In this document: positions 23,654-43,737 of the stretch, in pieces
How positions within the stretch are numbered: position 1 is the stretch's first letter
Layout: each line of letters opens with the position of its first letter
IMG/VR virus record: IMGVR_UViG_3300036944_001289
Coordinates: 1 to 64,000 of that record
DNA: 64,000 nt
Direction: 5' to 3' (one strand)
From: a virus
The notes under the pieces: model-generated
What the model saw: the letters and a program-made list of their open reading frames with translations, nothing else
Database searches by the model: none
Told to the model about the DNA's origin: nothing
Made by a program: the position numbers and the translations under genes

Positions 23654-25183
23654 TTAAGCTTTGATTACTTCATAACGGTCACTACAAACTGTATCGATCA
23701 TCATGTTATAAGGTGTTGTTGATTTGTTAGACAAAACACTCTTCAAGATTGAAGGTGAACAGCCTGATACTAAGCAAGTACCTTTATCGTCATATTTAAC
23801 CGGTACATCACTATAAGAGTTAACATTCCAATATACAATTTGAGGCACGTTGTAACCAGCTGCAGCGTACTTTGCCTTAATAGCAGCATGATTAGTTACT
23901 TCACCGCTATTAAGAGAGTCTGGCCCGGTAGCACAATCAAATTGCATATCTGAGATAATATATACATGGGATGGCATTTCAGATTGCGGCACTTTATTAC
24001 TTACGCCTTTATCAAGTATAAGATCAAATACAGATTGTAGATTAGTATTAGCAACCTCACGTCTACCAAGAACATCAGTTACATTTTGTATTAGACTTGT
24101 ACCTGTAATCTTTAAAAGTTTAGCATTATGGGAGAAGATCATAAAATGATCTTTGAATGCACCTTCGTTTCGTTCAGCAAAATAAATTGCAATTGATACA
24201 GCAACATCAATAGGTGCTATGTTATTACCAATATTAGCATTATAATAGTTACAAGAGTCCATTGAAGCTGAAACGTCAGCTACAACAATACCATTATGCT
24301 TATTACCGGCAAGATAATCTGGTAAGGCCTTCCATTGGGCCTCTAGAGTACGATCTACGGACCGTATATTACGAACTGAACGTACAATATCATATGGGTA
24401 CAATACTGAAGCGTTAATCTTTTCTTCACCTTTCTCGACATTAGTTAAAAACTTTGAGTAACGGTCACCGTCATGTTCTTTGAATGCTTTACGGTAAGTG
24501 CTTGCAGCCTTTGAAGGTACCGCAGGATAATTGATCTTGTCCCATTCACCTACACACATTTTGCGTTCCACTACATCGATCTTTTTACGAAGAGCTGATA
24601 GAAGCTTACGATATTGCTTTGGAGAGTAATCTAAAGTAGTACGTACTTTCTTTGCAAGACGTTTGGTTACAGAAGATGAAGCCTGTTCACTTGGTGCCCA
24701 TTTAGCACATAGTGAAGGATTCTTTTCAGATGCATCTTCAATAAGTTTATCAGCAACAAATTTAAGTGCGATTTTTTCAAGAGATGTACCTTCAAGCGTC
24801 TCAAGTACGTTGTCCCAACGAGTAAACTCAGGGATCTGGATCAAGAGGTTCTTAGCTACTTTCTCATCGTTTTGCGCAAGCCACTTAAAGCAGTTACGGA
24901 AGAGCTTACGCTCACCTTGACCTTCACGTACATCTACTAGATAGAAGAGAATCTTAAGAGCGATAGTCTTATCCTCATTATAAGCGGAGCGGAAAAGTGT
25001 AATAGATGCATCATCTGGTTGTGAACGCATTGAACCACCTTTACCAAAAAAATCGAGCAAAGAAGTACCAGTAGTCGAATGACTTACCGCACCATTATGC
25101 GTCTTGATATCTCCTGTAGTTAAAGCACTGATAAGTGCGTTTTGCTTAGGAGCTGTCTTTTTGATTGTTTTTTTAGTTGCCAT
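23654..25183 (-). CDS. Ro60/TROVE-VWA-like protein (DUF2828-type)
   Basis: The 509-residue protein has an alpha-helical N-terminal domain (about 50-290; FYLVDVREGQGERKLFRN, CAKWAPSEQ) like the HEAT-type TROVE ring. A von Willebrand A domain follows (about 295-480) with a MIDAS motif DVSASM near 305. This is the architecture of Ro60-like RNA-binding proteins and of the DUF2828 family found in large phages. Ro60 binds Y RNAs and misfolded RNAs. The partner could be one of the structured RNAs in this genome, which is inference. It has its own promoter-like motif and terminator. Confidence 0.8.
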   Translation of the reverse strand: MATKKTIKKTAPKQNALISALTTGDIKTHNGAVSHSTTGTSLLDFFGKGGSMRSQPDDASITLFRSAYNEDKTIALKILFYLVDVREGQGERKLFRNCFKWLAQNDEKVAKNLLIQIPEFTRWDNVLETLEGTSLEKIALKFVADKLIEDASEKNPSLCAKWAPSEQASSSVTKRLAKKVRTTLDYSPKQYRKLLSALRKKIDVVERKMCVGEWDKINYPAVPSKAASTYRKAFKEHDGDRYSKFLTNVEKGEEKINASVLYPYDIVRSVRNIRSVDRTLEAQWKALPDYLAGNKHNGIVVADVSASMDSCNYYNANIGNNIAPIDVAVSIAIYFAERNEGAFKDHFMIFSHNAKLLKITGTSLIQNVTDVLGRREVANTNLQSVFDLILDKGVSNKVPQSEMPSHVYIISDMQFDCATGPDSLNSGEVTNHAAIKAKYAAAGYNVPQIVYWNVNSYSDVPVKYDDKGTCLVSGCSPSILKSVLSNKSTTPYNMMIDTVCSDRYEVIKA

Positions 25184-25222
25184 AATTCTAAGTATATTTT
25201 TTGTTTGCTGTCGATACTTCAG

Positions 25223-25242
25223 TTTTATTTTATATATGTTCC
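25223..25242 (-). promoter_or_regulatory. GGAAC promoter-like motif
   Basis: Reads GGAACATATATAAAATAAAA, 59 nt upstream of the Ro60-like gene. Confidence 0.45.
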
Positions 25243-25249
25243 TTATTAA

Positions 25250-25489
25250 TCAAGTGCTTTTGTTGAAGAAATTTTCGTTAATACGTTTACTGTATTCATC
25301 TTGCATAGCTTTAGAATATGCAAATCTCCAGCGGACTAAATAGTCCATCTGTGGCTCGAACATCTTCTTTGTAACTTGATGTTTCCAACCTGGCTTACCA
25401 GGCATATCTTCCACAACATTTTCATACCATACAAGTCGTTCGAACCAATCTGGAATAGGTGGTGCGTGTGTTAGAAATTCAATATTCAT
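25250..25489 (-). CDS. Hypothetical protein, 79 aa
   Basis: Aromatic-rich small protein (PPIPDWFERLVWYENVVEDM). No family recognised. ATGA-type overlap with the gene upstream. Confidence 0.55.
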   Translation of the reverse strand: MNIEFLTHAPPIPDWFERLVWYENVVEDMPGKPGWKHQVTKKMFEPQMDYLVRWRFAYSKAMQDEYSKRINENFFNKST

Positions 25490-25695
25490 TGTTTAATTTT
25501 CTTTCTAAGAACGGATTGTGAGCAATGACCATTAAGATAATCTAATACCCAATCACTATCATATTCATTACTGTTATTAGGATCAATATTGAGTAGTTTA
25601 CATGCTTTATCTTCAATTTCTATAAGAGAATTCAGATGAGCTCTATAATTCTCTTTAAGCGATGTTAATTCTTTACTTTGTTGTTTTTGATTCAT
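25486..25695 (-). CDS. Hypothetical protein, 69 aa
   Basis: Charged helical protein. It sits between the metallopeptidase-VWA gene (2-nt gap) and the 79-aa gene, in one transcript with the MoxR pair. Confidence 0.55.
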   Translation of the reverse strand: MNQKQQSKELTSLKENYRAHLNSLIEIEDKACKLLNIDPNNSNEYDSDWVLDYLNGHCSQSVLRKKIKQ

Positions 25696-25697
25696 AA

Positions 25698-26951
25698 TTA
25701 TTCGTAGTCAGATAACTTAAATATTTTAGACTCTTTTGGTATATAATGTCTATAATTATCAGATAAAAACCAGTACCAACGTTCTGGCTTCTCTGGTTTA
25801 ACTGTATCACCATAACCATCAGTGATTAAAAATACAGCTTTAGGGTATTTAATCTTTTCAGATTTAATAGTATTTTGTATCTTAGATTCTATAATACTAA
25901 AAGAAGTACCTCCACCGCCGTACACTTTATTCTGTTTGATATCAATCTCTACAACAGAGGTATCAAAGCAAAATAAACGAACATTAAACCTATTAGGATT
26001 TAAACTACGTGCAGCAGTAAAGAAGCGATCTTTTAACCCAATACAAGAACCAGATGTATCTAAAAAGAACCATACATCAATCTTATGATTGTCTTTAAAA
26101 TCATCTAAGATCCAATTCTCAGTAGGTAGTGATATATCACTAGATAGTAATTGAGAGTATTTAGGAGTTACTCTCTCCCATCGTTCTAACGTATTGATAG
26201 TATCTTTATTAAACTGACTTTCCCATTTCTTAATAACAGTCTCCCACTTGTACTTCTTTTTTCTTAACGAATTTACAGTAAGCCATGAACCTGTGCCTTT
26301 ACCTGCAGCAGAGTTCTTTAATTTTTGCGTATCAACAGTTGATGGTAGTTTATTGGTAAATGATTCATCTAGTTTATCAAGAATACCAGAAGCATCTATC
26401 AAATCTTTCATCTGTTGTTGCTGTTCGGGAGTTAATACTTTATGAGAGTCTATAGCAAAGTATTTGTTCTCTTTATCTTTAGGTAGTCTATTAAAATAGT
26501 ATTCTGTAGATTGATTAGGTAAGCAATTTTTATCATTTTTGAATACCGTATCCATCCAGCAACCTTTTTCACTTAGATCATTATTCAGTTCAATTCTCTT
26601 AAAACTAAATGAACTTACTAAAGTCTCGTTAATAACTACATCGGCAGCTATATTCATATTACTAAATTCTTGTGTACCTATATACTCAGAGAATCTATAA
26701 CCATGCTCTAATAGAATGTGTAAAATCTCATGACAAACTAAAAAGAGTTTAGTTTCTTCGTTTAGAGAATTCCAAAAATCTTCATTTATCATCAAGTTAA
26801 GATGATTGCCTTGATCATCAAAGGTAATCGCAGCAGTAGGTAAATCATCAAACTTACCTACTATGGGGTTACCTATATCCCAAAAAGCTCTAAAGAAATA
26901 GTGATAACTTTGGAGCTTTTGAGATATTTCTAACCGTTCTTGATAGTTCAT
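25698..26951 (-). CDS. Metallopeptidase-like VWA protein (DUF2201 type)
   Basis: The 417-residue protein has an N-terminal putative metallopeptidase domain with CHEILHILLEHG near residue 74 (HExxH-type zinc site) and a C-terminal VWA-like domain with a MIDAS motif LDTSGSC near 300 and FLITDGYGD near 374. This two-domain layout is the VWA-like partner of MoxR ATPases. Its start overlaps the MoxR stop by 4 bp. The pair probably forms a chaperone that loads metals or remodels a protein complex. Confidence 0.85.
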   Translation of the reverse strand: MNYQERLEISQKLQSYHYFFRAFWDIGNPIVGKFDDLPTAAITFDDQGNHLNLMINEDFWNSLNEETKLFLVCHEILHILLEHGYRFSEYIGTQEFSNMNIAADVVINETLVSSFSFKRIELNNDLSEKGCWMDTVFKNDKNCLPNQSTEYYFNRLPKDKENKYFAIDSHKVLTPEQQQQMKDLIDASGILDKLDESFTNKLPSTVDTQKLKNSAAGKGTGSWLTVNSLRKKKYKWETVIKKWESQFNKDTINTLERWERVTPKYSQLLSSDISLPTENWILDDFKDNHKIDVWFFLDTSGSCIGLKDRFFTAARSLNPNRFNVRLFCFDTSVVEIDIKQNKVYGGGGTSFSIIESKIQNTIKSEKIKYPKAVFLITDGYGDTVKPEKPERWYWFLSDNYRHYIPKESKIFKLSDYE

Positions 26952-28522
26952 TTTATATTAGAAGATAGAGCAACAAGCATACTAGCCTCGTTTACTTTCT
27001 TTTCAAAGTCTTCAGATATAATAACACTCGTTTCATCTGAATCACCCCGTAAATAGTTTATAAATTCGTTATAGTGTGTATCTCCAATCTTAGCCTTATT
27101 AATATGTATCTGGGATCTTATTTGCTTTTGCTCATCTGTATTTAGCTTTTGTTTAGCTAACATACAGCATGTACCAATTAGAGGTAGTAGTTTAGATTTA
27201 TATTTAGTAAATGTGGTGGTTTGAAACGATCCAACCATAGTACATGTAAAGTTAATTACATCATAATGATTGGGTACATTACTCCAAGACTTAACTAAGT
27301 CCTCCATTAGACTTATATAAACGTTAGTACCTAGACTTCTATATACAGTAAAATCTATCTTCTTAGTTTTGCCTGCTACTAATATAGCAGGATTAACTGA
27401 GAATAAATCGTTTGTTGTGACTGAAGGTGGTAAAGATGTAAGTAGGTTGTTGGTAGATTGAGTTGTAATCTCAAACTTACTAATATCGAGATTTTGCGCT
27501 TCTAGTAGCTTAAGAACCTTTAATAAATCATTATTCATAGTTGAATTTGATACCGCTGTAATTGCAGCAGTAAAGGTTACATCCTTCTTTAACCCCTGTA
27601 ATATAGCATAGTTCTTATAAATACCACTATTCTTTATATTAGCACAGATATACTCTTGCTTGAGGTATTTATGGAATTTCCAGAAACGAGGCTCATTCAA
27701 CTTATCCTTATACTTGAGATAGTTCTGATCACCGAGTAAGAATAGCTTCATTACATCTTCTGTAGGATTAGCAAATACACTATGTAACAATGCGTCTTCT
27801 TTCTTGGTAGCAAGTTTAGTTACAAGATCTTTTGTATTAGCTGATACCGGTAGAAGATCATATACATCTCCTCCTTTATTGAAAAACTCTCCAATATAAT
27901 CTAATCTACGAGGACTTAGAATCTTCTTAGCATCATCTGATTGATCTTTCCACCAGTTAATAAGAATATTACCATGATGATCACCATACTTATCTACAAA
28001 GTATTTCTTATCAGGAGCATTTGGAAGCTCAACAATAACATGAAAACGGTCGAGTTGTGCAGGATCAAGTTGCTCTACATCATAGTCTTGTGAGTTAGCA
28101 TCGCTATCAGACTTAGGTGGATTAATAGCAGCCCAAACCATCTTAAGCTTAGGAAACTTACGACCGTTAATTGACTTAAACTGTTGAAGCTCAAGAAGAG
28201 CGTTCTTTACAAGTTTATGAGTTCTATTATATTCGTCAATAAATAATGCTTCAATATCTTCATCAAGGTTAGAAGGTAGAATAAAATCCATCTTCTCTTG
28301 ACCTTCTGCACCTCTTACTTTTGGGATACCAATCAAATGAATCCAAGGATCAAGAGTAGAACCAGAAAAATAAGCAAACTTAAGATTATTGCGTTTAAAT
28401 GCATCTATAACGCGCTGTGTCTTGCCAACACCCTTCTCGCCAATAAGAAGAACATTTACACCAAGTTGAACCCATTGATCGAGTTTAGCAGGGGTAGCAT
28501 TTACTTTATTGAATTGTAGCAT
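26948..28522 (-). CDS. MoxR-type AAA+ ATPase
   Basis: The 524-residue protein has Walker A GEKGVGKT near residue 28, Walker B ALFIDEYNR near 92, sensor 1 WAAINPP near 131 and QLDPAQLDRF near 152, with the short N-terminus typical of MoxR. A 300-residue helical C-terminal extension is unusual for MoxR and may bind the partner. It is coupled to a metallopeptidase-VWA gene, the classical MoxR-VWA gene pair. Confidence 0.85.
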   Translation of the reverse strand: MLQFNKVNATPAKLDQWVQLGVNVLLIGEKGVGKTQRVIDAFKRNNLKFAYFSGSTLDPWIHLIGIPKVRGAEGQEKMDFILPSNLDEDIEALFIDEYNRTHKLVKNALLELQQFKSINGRKFPKLKMVWAAINPPKSDSDANSQDYDVEQLDPAQLDRFHVIVELPNAPDKKYFVDKYGDHHGNILINWWKDQSDDAKKILSPRRLDYIGEFFNKGGDVYDLLPVSANTKDLVTKLATKKEDALLHSVFANPTEDVMKLFLLGDQNYLKYKDKLNEPRFWKFHKYLKQEYICANIKNSGIYKNYAILQGLKKDVTFTAAITAVSNSTMNNDLLKVLKLLEAQNLDISKFEITTQSTNNLLTSLPPSVTTNDLFSVNPAILVAGKTKKIDFTVYRSLGTNVYISLMEDLVKSWSNVPNHYDVINFTCTMVGSFQTTTFTKYKSKLLPLIGTCCMLAKQKLNTDEQKQIRSQIHINKAKIGDTHYNEFINYLRGDSDETSVIISEDFEKKVNEASMLVALSSNIK

Positions 28523-42169: not shown

Positions 42170-42179
42170 ATAAAAATTT

Positions 42180-42326
42180 ATATCTAATGTTCTACCATGT
42201 TGAACTATCCTCCTTGTTCTATTGGGTAAGAGAGGAGCGGACCTTGAACCCGCATCTTTAGATAAAGAGACTGGGTCTGCATAACAGACCCGAAAGCTCA
42301 CTGTACGCTTGGTACATGAACAAAAA
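42180..42326 (-). ncRNA. Permuted tRNA-like locus (third copy), degenerate
   Basis: On the minus strand the 3' half comes first: TCTAA (42258-42262), T-arm GCGGG-TTCAAGG-TCCGC (42237-42253), acceptor TCCTCTC (42230-42236). The 5' half follows: AGGAGGA (42208-42214), TA, D-arm GTTC-AACATGGTA-GAAC and TTAGA (42183-42187). TTAGA/TCTAA pair perfectly, but the acceptor has one mismatch and no clean CCA. A strong hairpin GGGTCTG/CAGACCC (42273-42291) lies upstream. It may be a decaying copy, or the 3' part could belong to a damaged class II tRNA. Confidence 0.5.
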
Positions 42327-42502: not shown

Positions 42503-42640
42503 TAAGTATATTTTTTGCGTTTACTGTGCTACCGTTACACTACTCTCCAATAAAGTATAAATTGGGTGGAGAGGTGGGAATTGAACCCACACTAGCATCT
42601 GTATATGATGATTGCGTTTTATTTTTGCTGTATATACTTA
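42503..42640 (-). ncRNA. Permuted tRNA-like RNA enclosed by the CAGCAA element
   Basis: Closed by TAAGTATAT (42632-42640 on the minus strand) and ATATACTTA (42503-42511). The 3' tRNA half comes first: T-arm GTGGG-TTCAATT-CCCAC (42574-42590), acceptor CTCTCCA, C73, CCA (ends 42563). A 13-nt spacer precedes the 5' half: TGGAGAG (42543-42549), TA, D-arm GTGT-AACGGTA-GCAC (42526-42540). The acceptor pairs over all 7 bp. An anticodon-arm-like CATC-ATATACA-GATG precedes the T-arm. Just inside the closing stem is CAGCAA, shared with three small RNAs in the array. Confidence 0.65.
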
Positions 42641-42643
42641 AAG

Positions 42644-42722
42644 TGGTACCCTAGGTGAGATTCGAACTCACACTGAAGAGTGTTTAAGACTCTGGCCATA
42701 CTACCAATTGGGCTACTAGGGC
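42644..42722 (-). tRNA. tRNA-Leu (TAA), short variable arm
   Basis: Anticodon arm AGAGT-CTTAAAC-ACTCT, T-arm GTGAG-TTCGAAT-CTCAC, A73, CCA. The variable loop is only five bases, unusual for Leu. Confidence 0.8.
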
Positions 42723-42731
42723 GTAAAAAAA

Positions 42732-42807
42732 TGGAGTCTCGTATAGGAATTGAACCTATGTAATTTCTTTTGCAGAGAAAAGCCTGTAACCACTCGACCA
42801 ACGAGAC
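42732..42807 (-). tRNA. tRNA-Cys (GCA), second copy
   Basis: Anticodon arm TTTCT-CTGCAAA-AGAAA, acceptor GTCTCGT/ACGAGAC, T73, CCA. Confidence 0.92.
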
Positions 42808-42813
42808 ATAAAA

Positions 42814-42890
42814 TGGTACCGATGAGCGGGATCGAACCGCCAAGCTTCTCCGTGAAAGGGAGGTGTCCTAACCAATTAGACGACATCGGC
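42814..42890 (-). tRNA. tRNA-Glu (TTC)
   Basis: Loop CTTTCAC, acceptor GCCGATG/CATCGGT, A73, CCA. Confidence 0.9.
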
Positions 42891-42902
42891 ATAAAAAATT
42901 TC

Positions 42903-42964
42903 AAAGTCCGTTTTTAGCTTGTATTGATTAATATTCAATTGCTTTTGATTGCTGTGCGGACTTT
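42903..42964 (-). ncRNA. Small structured RNA, CAGCAA family copy 1
   Basis: Closed by AAAGTCCG/CGGACTTT, with CAGCAA two bases inside the 5' strand (GCACAGCAAT). 62 nt, no tRNA features. Confidence 0.6.
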
Positions 42965-42970
42965 TATTAC

Positions 42971-43024
42971 TAAGTTCAGCTTTTTGTTGTATTCAATGAC
43001 ATTTAGTATTGCTGGATGAACTTA
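42971..43024 (-). ncRNA. Small structured RNA, CAGCAA family copy 2
   Basis: Closed by TAAGTTCA/TGAACTTA, with CAGCAA two bases inside. 54 nt, directly next to copy 1. Confidence 0.6.
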
Positions 43025-43027
43025 AAT

Positions 43028-43099
43028 TGGGTGCAGCGCTGGTACTCGAAACCAGAGAAGGTAGCTTATGAGACTCCTTGGGCAACCTGCCTCACTGCA
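43028..43099 (-). tRNA. tRNA-Met-type (CAT) with reduced D-arm
   Basis: Loop CTCATAA, T-arm CTGGT-TTCGAGT-ACCAG, acceptor TGCAGTG/CGCTGCA, C73, CCA. The D-arm is short. CAT could be Met or, if C34 is modified, Ile. Confidence 0.75.
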
Positions 43100-43105
43100 A
43101 TAAAT

Positions 43106-43158
43106 TGGCGATGTAACTAATCTGAAATATTGACTTGTAAGCGTTCTTACCGTTACAT
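43106..43158 (-). ncRNA. Mini-helix RNA ending in CCA
   Basis: ATGTAAC/GTTACAT closing stem, inner hairpin GTAAG-AACG-CTTAC and a 3' CGCCA. Too short for a tRNA: 53 nt and no T-arm. Confidence 0.4.
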
Positions 43159-43167
43159 TATTAAATA

Positions 43168-43243
43168 TGGTGGTAGAGGTGAGACTTGAACTCACAAATA
43201 AGAGCTTATGAAACTCTTGCCTAAACCGTTCGGCCTCTCTACC
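43168..43243 (-). tRNA. tRNA-Met-type (CAT)
   Basis: Anticodon arm AGAGT-TTCATAA-GCTCT, acceptor GGTAGAG/CTCTACC, A73, CCA. Elongator Met or Ile2. Confidence 0.9.
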
Positions 43244-43244
43244 A

Positions 43245-43338
43245 TGGTAGTCAGGGAGGGAATTGAACCCTCGCTCGGCACCAATCTAGTGCTCACGGTT
43301 TATAAGGCCGTCGATGCTTCCAATTACATTACCTGACT
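43245..43338 (-). tRNA. tRNA with class II arm, anticodon TAT by position
   Basis: Acceptor AGTCAGG/CCTGACT, A73, CCA, stem ACGGC/ACCGT with loop CTTATAA and a long variable arm. TAT would read AUA (Ile), but Ile tRNAs are class I, so the identity is unsure. Confidence 0.65.
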
Positions 43339-43344
43339 ATAAAA

Positions 43345-43418
43345 TGGCTGAGATGGCTGGTAACGCTCCAACTTCTTCGGGGTCAAAGTCCGAGGTAATA
43401 CTTTTATACGACATCTCA
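43345..43418 (-). tRNA. tRNA-Gln (TTG)
   Basis: Loop CTTTGAC, acceptor TGAGATG/CATCTCA, G73 as expected for Gln, CCA. The D-loop lacks GG. Confidence 0.85.
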
Positions 43419-43425
43419 ATAAAAT

Positions 43426-43511
43426 TGGTACGGTGTGAAGGAGTTGAACCTTCAAGGCTCATGCAGTCTAAATGCATACTGTCTGCCAAATTCCAGCTTA
43501 ACCAACACCGT
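43426..43511 (-). tRNA. tRNA-Leu (TAG)
   Basis: Anticodon arm ATGCA-TTTAGAC-TGCAT, a Leu-like D-loop (CTGGAATTTGGCAGAC), acceptor ACGGTGT/ACACCGT, A73, CCA. Variable arm about seven bases. Confidence 0.85.
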
Positions 43512-43518
43512 AATAAAA

Positions 43519-43592
43519 TGGTCCTCCACCTCGGTTACGCTCCGAGTCCTTTCCGCCCCAAACGGGAAATGCTACTATAACACCTGTGAAGG
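43519..43592 (-). tRNA. tRNA-Pro (TGG)
   Basis: Loop TTTGGGG, acceptor CCTTCAC/GTGGAGG, A73, CCA, T-arm CTCGG-AGCGTAA-CCGAG. Confidence 0.88.
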
Positions 43593-43599
43593 ATAAAAA

Positions 43600-43675
43600 T
43601 GGCGATGGTACGGGGAAATTGAACCCCGACTTGAACAGTGACAGTGTTCTGTGCAAACCTTTACACTATACCATC
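43600..43675 (-). tRNA. tRNA-Asp (GTC)
   Basis: Anticodon arm GAACA-CTGTCAC-TGTTC, acceptor GATGGTA/TACCATC, G73 as expected for Asp, CCA. Confidence 0.92.
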
Positions 43676-43683
43676 GTAAAAAC

Positions 43684-43737
43684 TAAGTCCATTTATTTAC
43701 CTTATTGTAGTATTTTAATGGTTGCTGTCTGGACTTA
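43684..43737 (-). ncRNA. Small structured RNA, CAGCAA family copy 3
   Basis: Closed by TAAGTCCA/TGGACTTA, with CAGCAA two bases inside. 54 nt, between tRNA-Asp and the HNH gene. Confidence 0.6.

What the first reader, a model, noticed from the sequence alone, without database searches (positions are those of the whole stretch)
42503..43737. Family of small RNAs: 8-9-bp closing stem plus CAGCAA
Three 54-62-nt elements (42903-42964, 42971-43024, 43684-43737) share AAGT-type closing stems with compensating changes (GTCCG/CGGAC, GTTCA/TGAAC, GTCCA/TGGAC) and CAGCAA at the same distance inside. The permuted tRNA at 42503-42640 has the same edges. Covarying stems around a fixed motif indicate a conserved RNA, perhaps bound by the Ro60-like protein.
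Basis: partly seen in the sequence, partly recalled or inferred. Interest (0 to 1): 0.72.

Follow-up and report, generated by a model that had tools for sequence, protein, structure and literature searches.

The report
Phage Ro60-like protein's small RNAs
Many phages that carry a relative of the human Ro60 protein also carry a family of short hairpin RNAs with a fixed CAGCAA motif, sometimes wrapped around a tRNA mimic and often placed on the start of the Ro60-like gene itself, which points to a viral version of the Ro60-Y RNA system that regulates itself.

Summary
The four elements are real. All sit on the minus strand and fit one pattern, AAGT-N5-CAGCAA with a covarying closing stem (5 window matches versus 0.17 expected). 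It is a 30-nt version at 25219-25190, ending 6 nt before the ATG of the Ro60-like gene. The same element (7-bp stem, 2-3 nt, CAGCAA, variable insert, stem, G) occurs beside homologous Ro60-like (DUF2828/phrog_850) genes across phages of many hosts. A covariance model hit 14/14 records with the gene (one found blind) and 0/7 without it (E<=0.01). Hits lie on the gene's strand and are absent from 62 bacterial TROVE/Ro60 loci. Eighteen copies hold a YrlA-type permuted-tRNA module. In several lineages one copy abuts the gene's ribosome-binding site, and those copies carry a weakened CAGCAA. Best reading: a phage family of Y-RNA-like ligands for the Ro60-like protein, plus leader operators for translational autorepression. 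Binding and repression are inferred, not shown. Mycobacteriophage Y RNAs are reported, and Y RNAs were suggested in a Listeria phage. The motif, hairpin-only members and operator copies appear new. It is not in Rfam.

The parts
43684..43737 (-). hairpin-only element (54 nt): UAAGUCCA-GA-CAGCAA-N30-UGGACUUA, then G
   Evidence: CM R1 48.7 bits; in the training set
42971..43024 (-). hairpin-only element (54 nt): UAAGUUCA-UC-CAGCAA-N30-UGAACUUA, then G
   Evidence: CM 44.4 bits; in the training set
42903..42964 (-). hairpin-only element (62 nt): AAAGUCCG-CA-CAGCAA-N38-CGGACUUU, then G
   Evidence: CM 32.5 bits, not in the training set
42503..42640 (-). element with tRNA-like insert (138 nt): UAAGUAUA-UA-CAGCAA-[T-arm, capped acceptor, D-arm]-UAUACUUA, then G
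42574..42590 (-). T-arm of the insert: GUGGG-UUCAAUU-CCCAC
42543..42573 (-). acceptor stem CUCUCCA/UGGAGAG capped by a 17-nt loop (strands 42567-42573 and 42543-42549)
42526..42540 (-). D-arm GUGU-AACGGUA-GCAC, preceded by UA
25190..25219 (-). fifth copy, probable operator: AAGUAU-CGA-CAGCAA-ACAAAAAAU-AUACUU, then AGAAUU-AUG
   Evidence: too short a loop for the CM
23654..25183 (-). Ro60-like protein, 509 aa (DUF2828 + DUF7788; phrog_850 RNA-binding protein); helical-repeat part plus vWA domain with DVSASM MIDAS
   Evidence: Pfam; PHROGs; AlphaFold2 pLDDT 88; Foldseek best hits all TROVE/Ro60

Best explanation
These are members of a widespread phage RNA family that works like Y RNAs. Each RNA is closed by pairing of its ends (7 bp) and displays NN(N)CAGCAA at a fixed distance from the stem base, a handle bound by the phage's own Ro60-like protein. 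What lies inside the handle varies: a short A-rich loop, or a tRNA-mimic module that could recruit tRNA-handling factors or nucleases as YrlA does. A copy placed on the ribosome-binding site of the Ro60-like gene is an operator: once free protein exceeds the stand-alone RNAs, it binds there and blocks translation. Shown by computation: the family, its covariation, its strand and location, its association with the gene, the tRNA-like modules, the Ro60 fold, and the weaker motif in start-proximal copies. Inferred: binding, repression, and the role in RNA quality control during infection.
For: Window count 5 vs 0.17 expected. Unbiased hexamer test: CAGCAA ranks first of all hexamers 2-3 nt inside a >=7-bp stem in 74 dereplicated leaders (25 leaders, of 28 with any CAGCAA; 0 on the other strand). 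Swap test, not circular: exact 7-bp partner at the fixed distance for 37/50 CAGCAA sites upstream and 42/72 downstream, vs 1.8 and 2.0 after swapping stems between genomes; gene body 0/41, antisense 1/64. All 7 pairs have two-sided changes. CM: 118 hits, every one in the homologue loci on the gene's strand. Gene-positive records 14/14, gene-less 0/7 at E<=0.01, ten of the positives outside the training set, one (Aeromonas 4_4572) discovered blind; IMG/VR 15/15. Start-proximal copies 4-14 nt from ATG in 23 loci, several touching GGAG, with CAGCAA intact in 6/17 vs 74/86 elsewhere, p=3.8e-5. 18 permuted T-acceptor-D modules in 12 records. Ro60 fold. In Listeria phage CKA15 three copies lie in the unannotated gap just before CKA15_055; the authors report three very highly transcribed noncoding regions within 2 kb upstream of that gene and the protein in purified virions (PMC12282133).
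Against: No binding, footprinting or RNA-seq datum for this phage. A 42-row clade of the protein has no leader copy (copies lie just downstream), and about ten other rows lack a detected leader copy, so autoregulation is not universal. Start-proximal copies with a degenerate hexamer may include chance hairpins. The best mapped CKA15 hot region (26,236-26,727) holds no element. The window phage's genes mostly lack Shine-Dalgarno sequences, so its operator would have to act by occupying the ribosome site. Distant phrog_850 relatives (phage G, crAss001, Lak-B5) lack significant CM hits.
Confidence: 0.8

Rival explanations
1. The elements are Y-RNA-like ligands only; copies near the start codon are stand-alone RNAs that happen to sit there in compact genomes, with no autoregulation.
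For: Many copies lie 60-400 nt upstream or downstream of the gene or in distant tRNA arrays; one large clade has no leader copy.
Against: The upstream distance distribution peaks at the start codon (23 within 20 nt); stem ends abut GGAG in several lineages; start-proximal copies carry a weakened motif (p=3.8e-5), as operators often do; KVP40's copy overlaps the start codon.
Confidence: 0.17
2. They are processing signals or spacers of the polycistronic tRNA transcript (for example RNase III or RNase E sites), unrelated to the Ro60-like protein.
For: The window copies and many others lie between tRNA genes on the tRNA strand.
Against: Phages without the gene, including tRNA-bearing EPA3, lack them; many copies flank the gene without a tRNA next to them; 7-8 bp is short for RNase III; a fixed CAGCAA inside the stem is not explained.
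Confidence: 0.02
3. Chance hairpins, or copies of a small mobile repeat.
For: AT-rich genome; stem bases are alike within one genome.
Against: Shuffles, swaps, antisense and gene-body controls; loops are unrelated between copies; single-strand bias of all 115 hits in homologue loci.
Confidence: 0.01

Closest known systems
YrlA / bacterial Y RNAs bound by Rsr (TROVE Ro60), as in Salmonella and Deinococcus
   Same: End-paired stem bound (here presumed) by a Ro60-fold protein; a tRNA-like module with T-arm, closed acceptor and D-arm; gene near the Ro60 gene (description of YrlA from PMC8394870).
   Different: Partner protein is DUF2828/phrog_850, not TROVE at sequence level. The motif is CAGCAA; 78 bacterial TROVE loci instead carry GGTTATC (55 sense, 1 antisense), and 62 of them searched gave no CM hit. 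Most members are hairpin-only and multi-copy, often in tRNA arrays, and some sit on the protein's own start.
Mycobacteriophage Y RNAs (Chen et al. 2014, cited in PMC12282133; not readable here)
   Same: Krypton555 has a copy with a permuted-tRNA insert just downstream of its Ro-like gene; probably the kind reported.
   Different: It is flanked by two hairpin-only copies with the same handle, and the handle extends to phages of many hosts.
Ribosomal-protein-type autoregulatory leaders (own knowledge)
   Same: mRNA leader mimics the protein's main RNA ligand, in a weaker form, next to the start site.
   Different: Ligand is a Y-RNA-like hairpin rather than rRNA; repression not tested.
Circularly permuted tRNA genes
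   Same: 3' half precedes 5' half in the 42503-42640 insert.
   Different: No convincing anticodon stem; acceptor ends closed by a loop; enclosed in the CAGCAA handle.

Membership tests
Y RNA (function-level class) | 5' and 3' ends pair into a stem | tested here: met
   7 covarying pairs, (transcript ends themselves not mapped)
Y RNA (function-level class) | bound by a Ro60-family protein | not testable with these tools
   Genomic association only; fold match
Bacterial Y RNA / YrlA | tRNA-like module (T-arm, closed acceptor, D-arm) beyond the stem | tested here: met
   Met for 18 copies incl. window 42503-42640; hairpin-only copies lack it
Bacterial Y RNA next to TROVE genes | motif shared with the presumed Y RNAs beside TROVE genes (GGTTATC) | tested here: not met
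   GGTTATC near 9/89 phage genes vs 55/78 TROVE genes; CAGCAA near 66/89 vs 16/78
Any Rfam 15 family | match at gathering score | tested here: not met
   permissive scan
Ro60 / TROVE protein | TROVE sequence profile PF05731 | tested here: not met
Ro60 / TROVE protein | helical-repeat ring plus vWA/MIDAS fold | tested here: met
   Foldseek top 7 hits are TROVE/Ro60, best E 1.1e-7, TM about 0.55
Permuted tRNA gene | re-forms a tRNA with anticodon stem and loop | tested here: inconclusive
   not called by ARAGORN or Rfam tRNA, which do not look for permuted genes; no anticodon helix seen

The most novel reading that the evidence does not exclude
Phages carry a separate Ro60-Y RNA lineage (DUF2828 protein with CAGCAA-handle RNAs) in which weakened handle copies on the protein's own start codon sense when Y RNAs are saturated, giving a titration-controlled, self-contained RNP; in some phages the protein travels in the virion.
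Probability: 0.6. Interest if true: 0.87.

Novelty: new variant of a known kind. Interest (0 to 1): 0.78.

Why it matters
Ro60 and Y RNAs are old, medically important (an autoantigen) and poorly understood. A minimal set of 50-60-nt ligands with one short motif, found in culturable phages such as P100, KVP40, Felix O1 relatives and mycobacteriophages, makes Ro60 recognition, Y RNA function and regulation directly testable. It also annotates a recurrent unknown noncoding RNA of phage tRNA arrays and gives a model (CM R1) to find it.

Tried and rejected
Direct search for close relatives of the protein in IMG/VR with single-sequence patterns found none; the alignment did. DNA similarity of the region finds only tRNAs and one stretch near the gene at 43.7 kb. 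First 70-sequence MAFFT alignment misaligned the 3' stem and was not used. RtcB is absent from the own record, so RNA-repair-operon linkage is not general. No clear promoter or terminator signal above chance around the elements. I expected CKA15's most abundant region to hold elements; it does not. Aeromonas 4_4572 was meant as a gene-less control and proved gene-positive. Chen 2014 and the Sim/Wolin reviews are not held.

Full report
THE OBSERVATION. The window is part of a 209,282-bp virus record. Written 5'-3' they are UAAGUCCA-GA-CAGCAA..UGGACUUA-G, UAAGUUCA-UC-CAGCAA..UGAACUUA-G, AAAGUCCG-CA-CAGCAA..CGGACUUU-G and UAAGUAUA-UA-CAGCAA..UAUACUUA-G. The pattern AAGT-N5-CAGCAA occurs five times in the window against 0.17 expected. 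No other copy exists in the remaining 145 kb.

THE PROTEIN. It matches DUF2828 and DUF7788 and phrog_850 'RNA-binding protein', not the TROVE profile. An AlphaFold2 model from 41 relatives (pLDDT 88) has TROVE/Ro60 structures as its only matches at E<=0.001. 676 phage records encode a relative. So it is a Ro60-fold protein of a separate sequence family.

RELATIVES OF THE ELEMENT. I collected 12 GenBank phages and 80 IMG/VR loci with the gene. In the 400-nt leaders, dereplicated to 74, CAGCAA is the hexamer most often found 2-3 nt inside a stem of at least 7 bp: 25 leaders, of only 28 that contain CAGCAA at all, and 0 on the other strand. To avoid selecting by pairing, I took every CAGCAA near the gene and asked whether the heptamer at fixed distance has an exact partner downstream: 37/50 upstream, 42/72 downstream, against about 2 when heptamers are swapped between genomes; 0/41 inside the gene and 1/64 antisense. 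Composition-matched hexamers have such stems at about 3% against 12.9% for CAGCAA over whole loci. A further conserved feature is a G directly 3' of the stem.

COVARIANCE MODEL. R1 was built from 25 aligned copies. All seven pairs show two-sided changes (these counts lean on selection for pairing, so the swap test is the primary evidence). The eighth pair is not conserved. R1 gave 118 hits in 74 sources; every hit in the homologue loci is on the gene's strand, and 38 and 38 lie within 500 nt upstream and downstream of the gene. It gave none in 62 bacterial TROVE loci, 421 kb. In whole genomes, 13/13 named or own records with the gene hit (E<=0.1, nearly all far below 0.01) and 0/4 without did; four of the 13 were in training. 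A second panel was more telling: Aeromonas phage 4_4572, taken as a supposed negative, gave seven hits and then proved to hold a phrog_850 gene with five elements in its leader, the last ending 14 nt before the ATG. P-SSM2, phage K and HTVC008M, without the gene, have no hit at E<=0.01 (HTVC008M has one at 0.038), nor do phage G, crAss001 and Lak-B5, whose proteins are distant relatives. All 15 IMG/VR records tested hit (some were in training).

TWO KINDS OF CONTENT. Most copies are 47-65 nt with an A-rich loop. Eighteen in 12 records hold T-arm, acceptor stem closed by a loop, UA/UG/UC, and D-arm, in that order. The window's 42503-42640 is one; another is the middle of three copies right after the Ro-like gene of mycobacteriophage Krypton555. 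This is the YrlA layout as described in PMC8394870, not a tRNA gene.

LEADER COPIES. In 23 loci the stem ends 4-14 nt before the ATG, often joined to the Shine-Dalgarno (CAACUUGGAGAAAAUUAUG; UCAAUCUGGAGAUACAUCAUG; UAAUUCUGGAGGUAAACUAUG); in KVP40 the stem includes the start codon. The window copy ends 6 nt before its ATG. Start-proximal copies keep CAGCAA in 6/17 cases against 74/86 for other copies (p=3.8e-5). A weaker copy of the ligand on the start site is what autorepression by excess protein would need. Across the protein tree, leader copies cluster by clade (9 changes against 29 shuffled, quick tree); one 42-row clade instead has copies just downstream of the gene.

EXISTING EXPERIMENTAL HINTS. 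In Listeria phage CKA15 (OR088597) three elements occupy the unannotated gap 25216-25610 before CKA15_055. The CKA15 paper (PMC12282133) reports three very highly transcribed noncoding regions within 2 kb upstream of that gene, mentions two promoters driving unannotated regions near tRNA genes, proposes Y RNAs without identifying them, and detects CKA15_055 in purified virions. That the element gap is one of those unannotated regions is my inference by elimination; the region 26,236-26,727 holds no element.

MECHANISM. Most likely the Ro60-like protein binds the 7-bp stem and the CAGCAA strand. Hairpin-only copies would act as gates or sponges, tRNA-module copies as tethers for partners that recognise tRNA, and leader copies as operators. 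The target process (quality control or protection of phage tRNAs and rRNA) is inferred from Ro60 biology and from the tRNA-array setting.

NOVELTY. Y RNAs in bacteria and mycobacteriophages are known, and TROVE proteins in jumbo phages were noted (PMC7824862). I found no report of the CAGCAA handle, hairpin-only members, its spread over phages of many hosts, or leader operators (the search library is partial), and no Rfam family. I file it as a new variant of the Y RNA kind, not as a member of the TROVE-associated Y RNAs, whose motif it lacks.

Noticed in passing
L102-L179 (bacterial TROVE/rsr loci): GGTTATC lies within 900 nt upstream or 700 nt downstream of the gene in 55 of 78 loci on the sense strand and 1 antisense; one locus (L164:4624-4689) matches a nematode Y-RNA-like Rfam family. 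It looks like the conserved handle of ordinary bacterial Y RNAs.
   Followed up: partly
L185:2737-3228 (CKA15 26,236-26,727): The reported most-transcribed Listeria phage region has no CAGCAA element and no Rfam match; an abundant unidentified RNA.
   Followed up: partly
L102, L103, L105, L106, L113, L167: Several bacterial-MAG contigs with a TROVE gene carry dense tRNA arrays around it, so may be phage or plasmid.
   Followed up: no
L015 (LR597663): GenBank tRNAs are annotated on the strand opposite to the one on which cmscan finds them.
   Followed up: no
window 25698-28522: A DUF2201-type metallopeptidase-like protein and a neighbouring protein that looks like an AAA ATPase by eye (no Pfam hit) sit just upstream of the Ro60-like gene.
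   Followed up: no
window 42178-42318, 43026-43165: Further tRNA-like or tRNA-remnant sequences in the array that neither ARAGORN nor Rfam calls.
   Followed up: no
Felix-, Listeria-, cyano- and mycobacteriophage loci: The outer stem bases are alike within a genome (AAGU, AGACC, UGGAC, UAGAUG) and differ between genomes, which suggests co-evolution with the protein.
   Followed up: no
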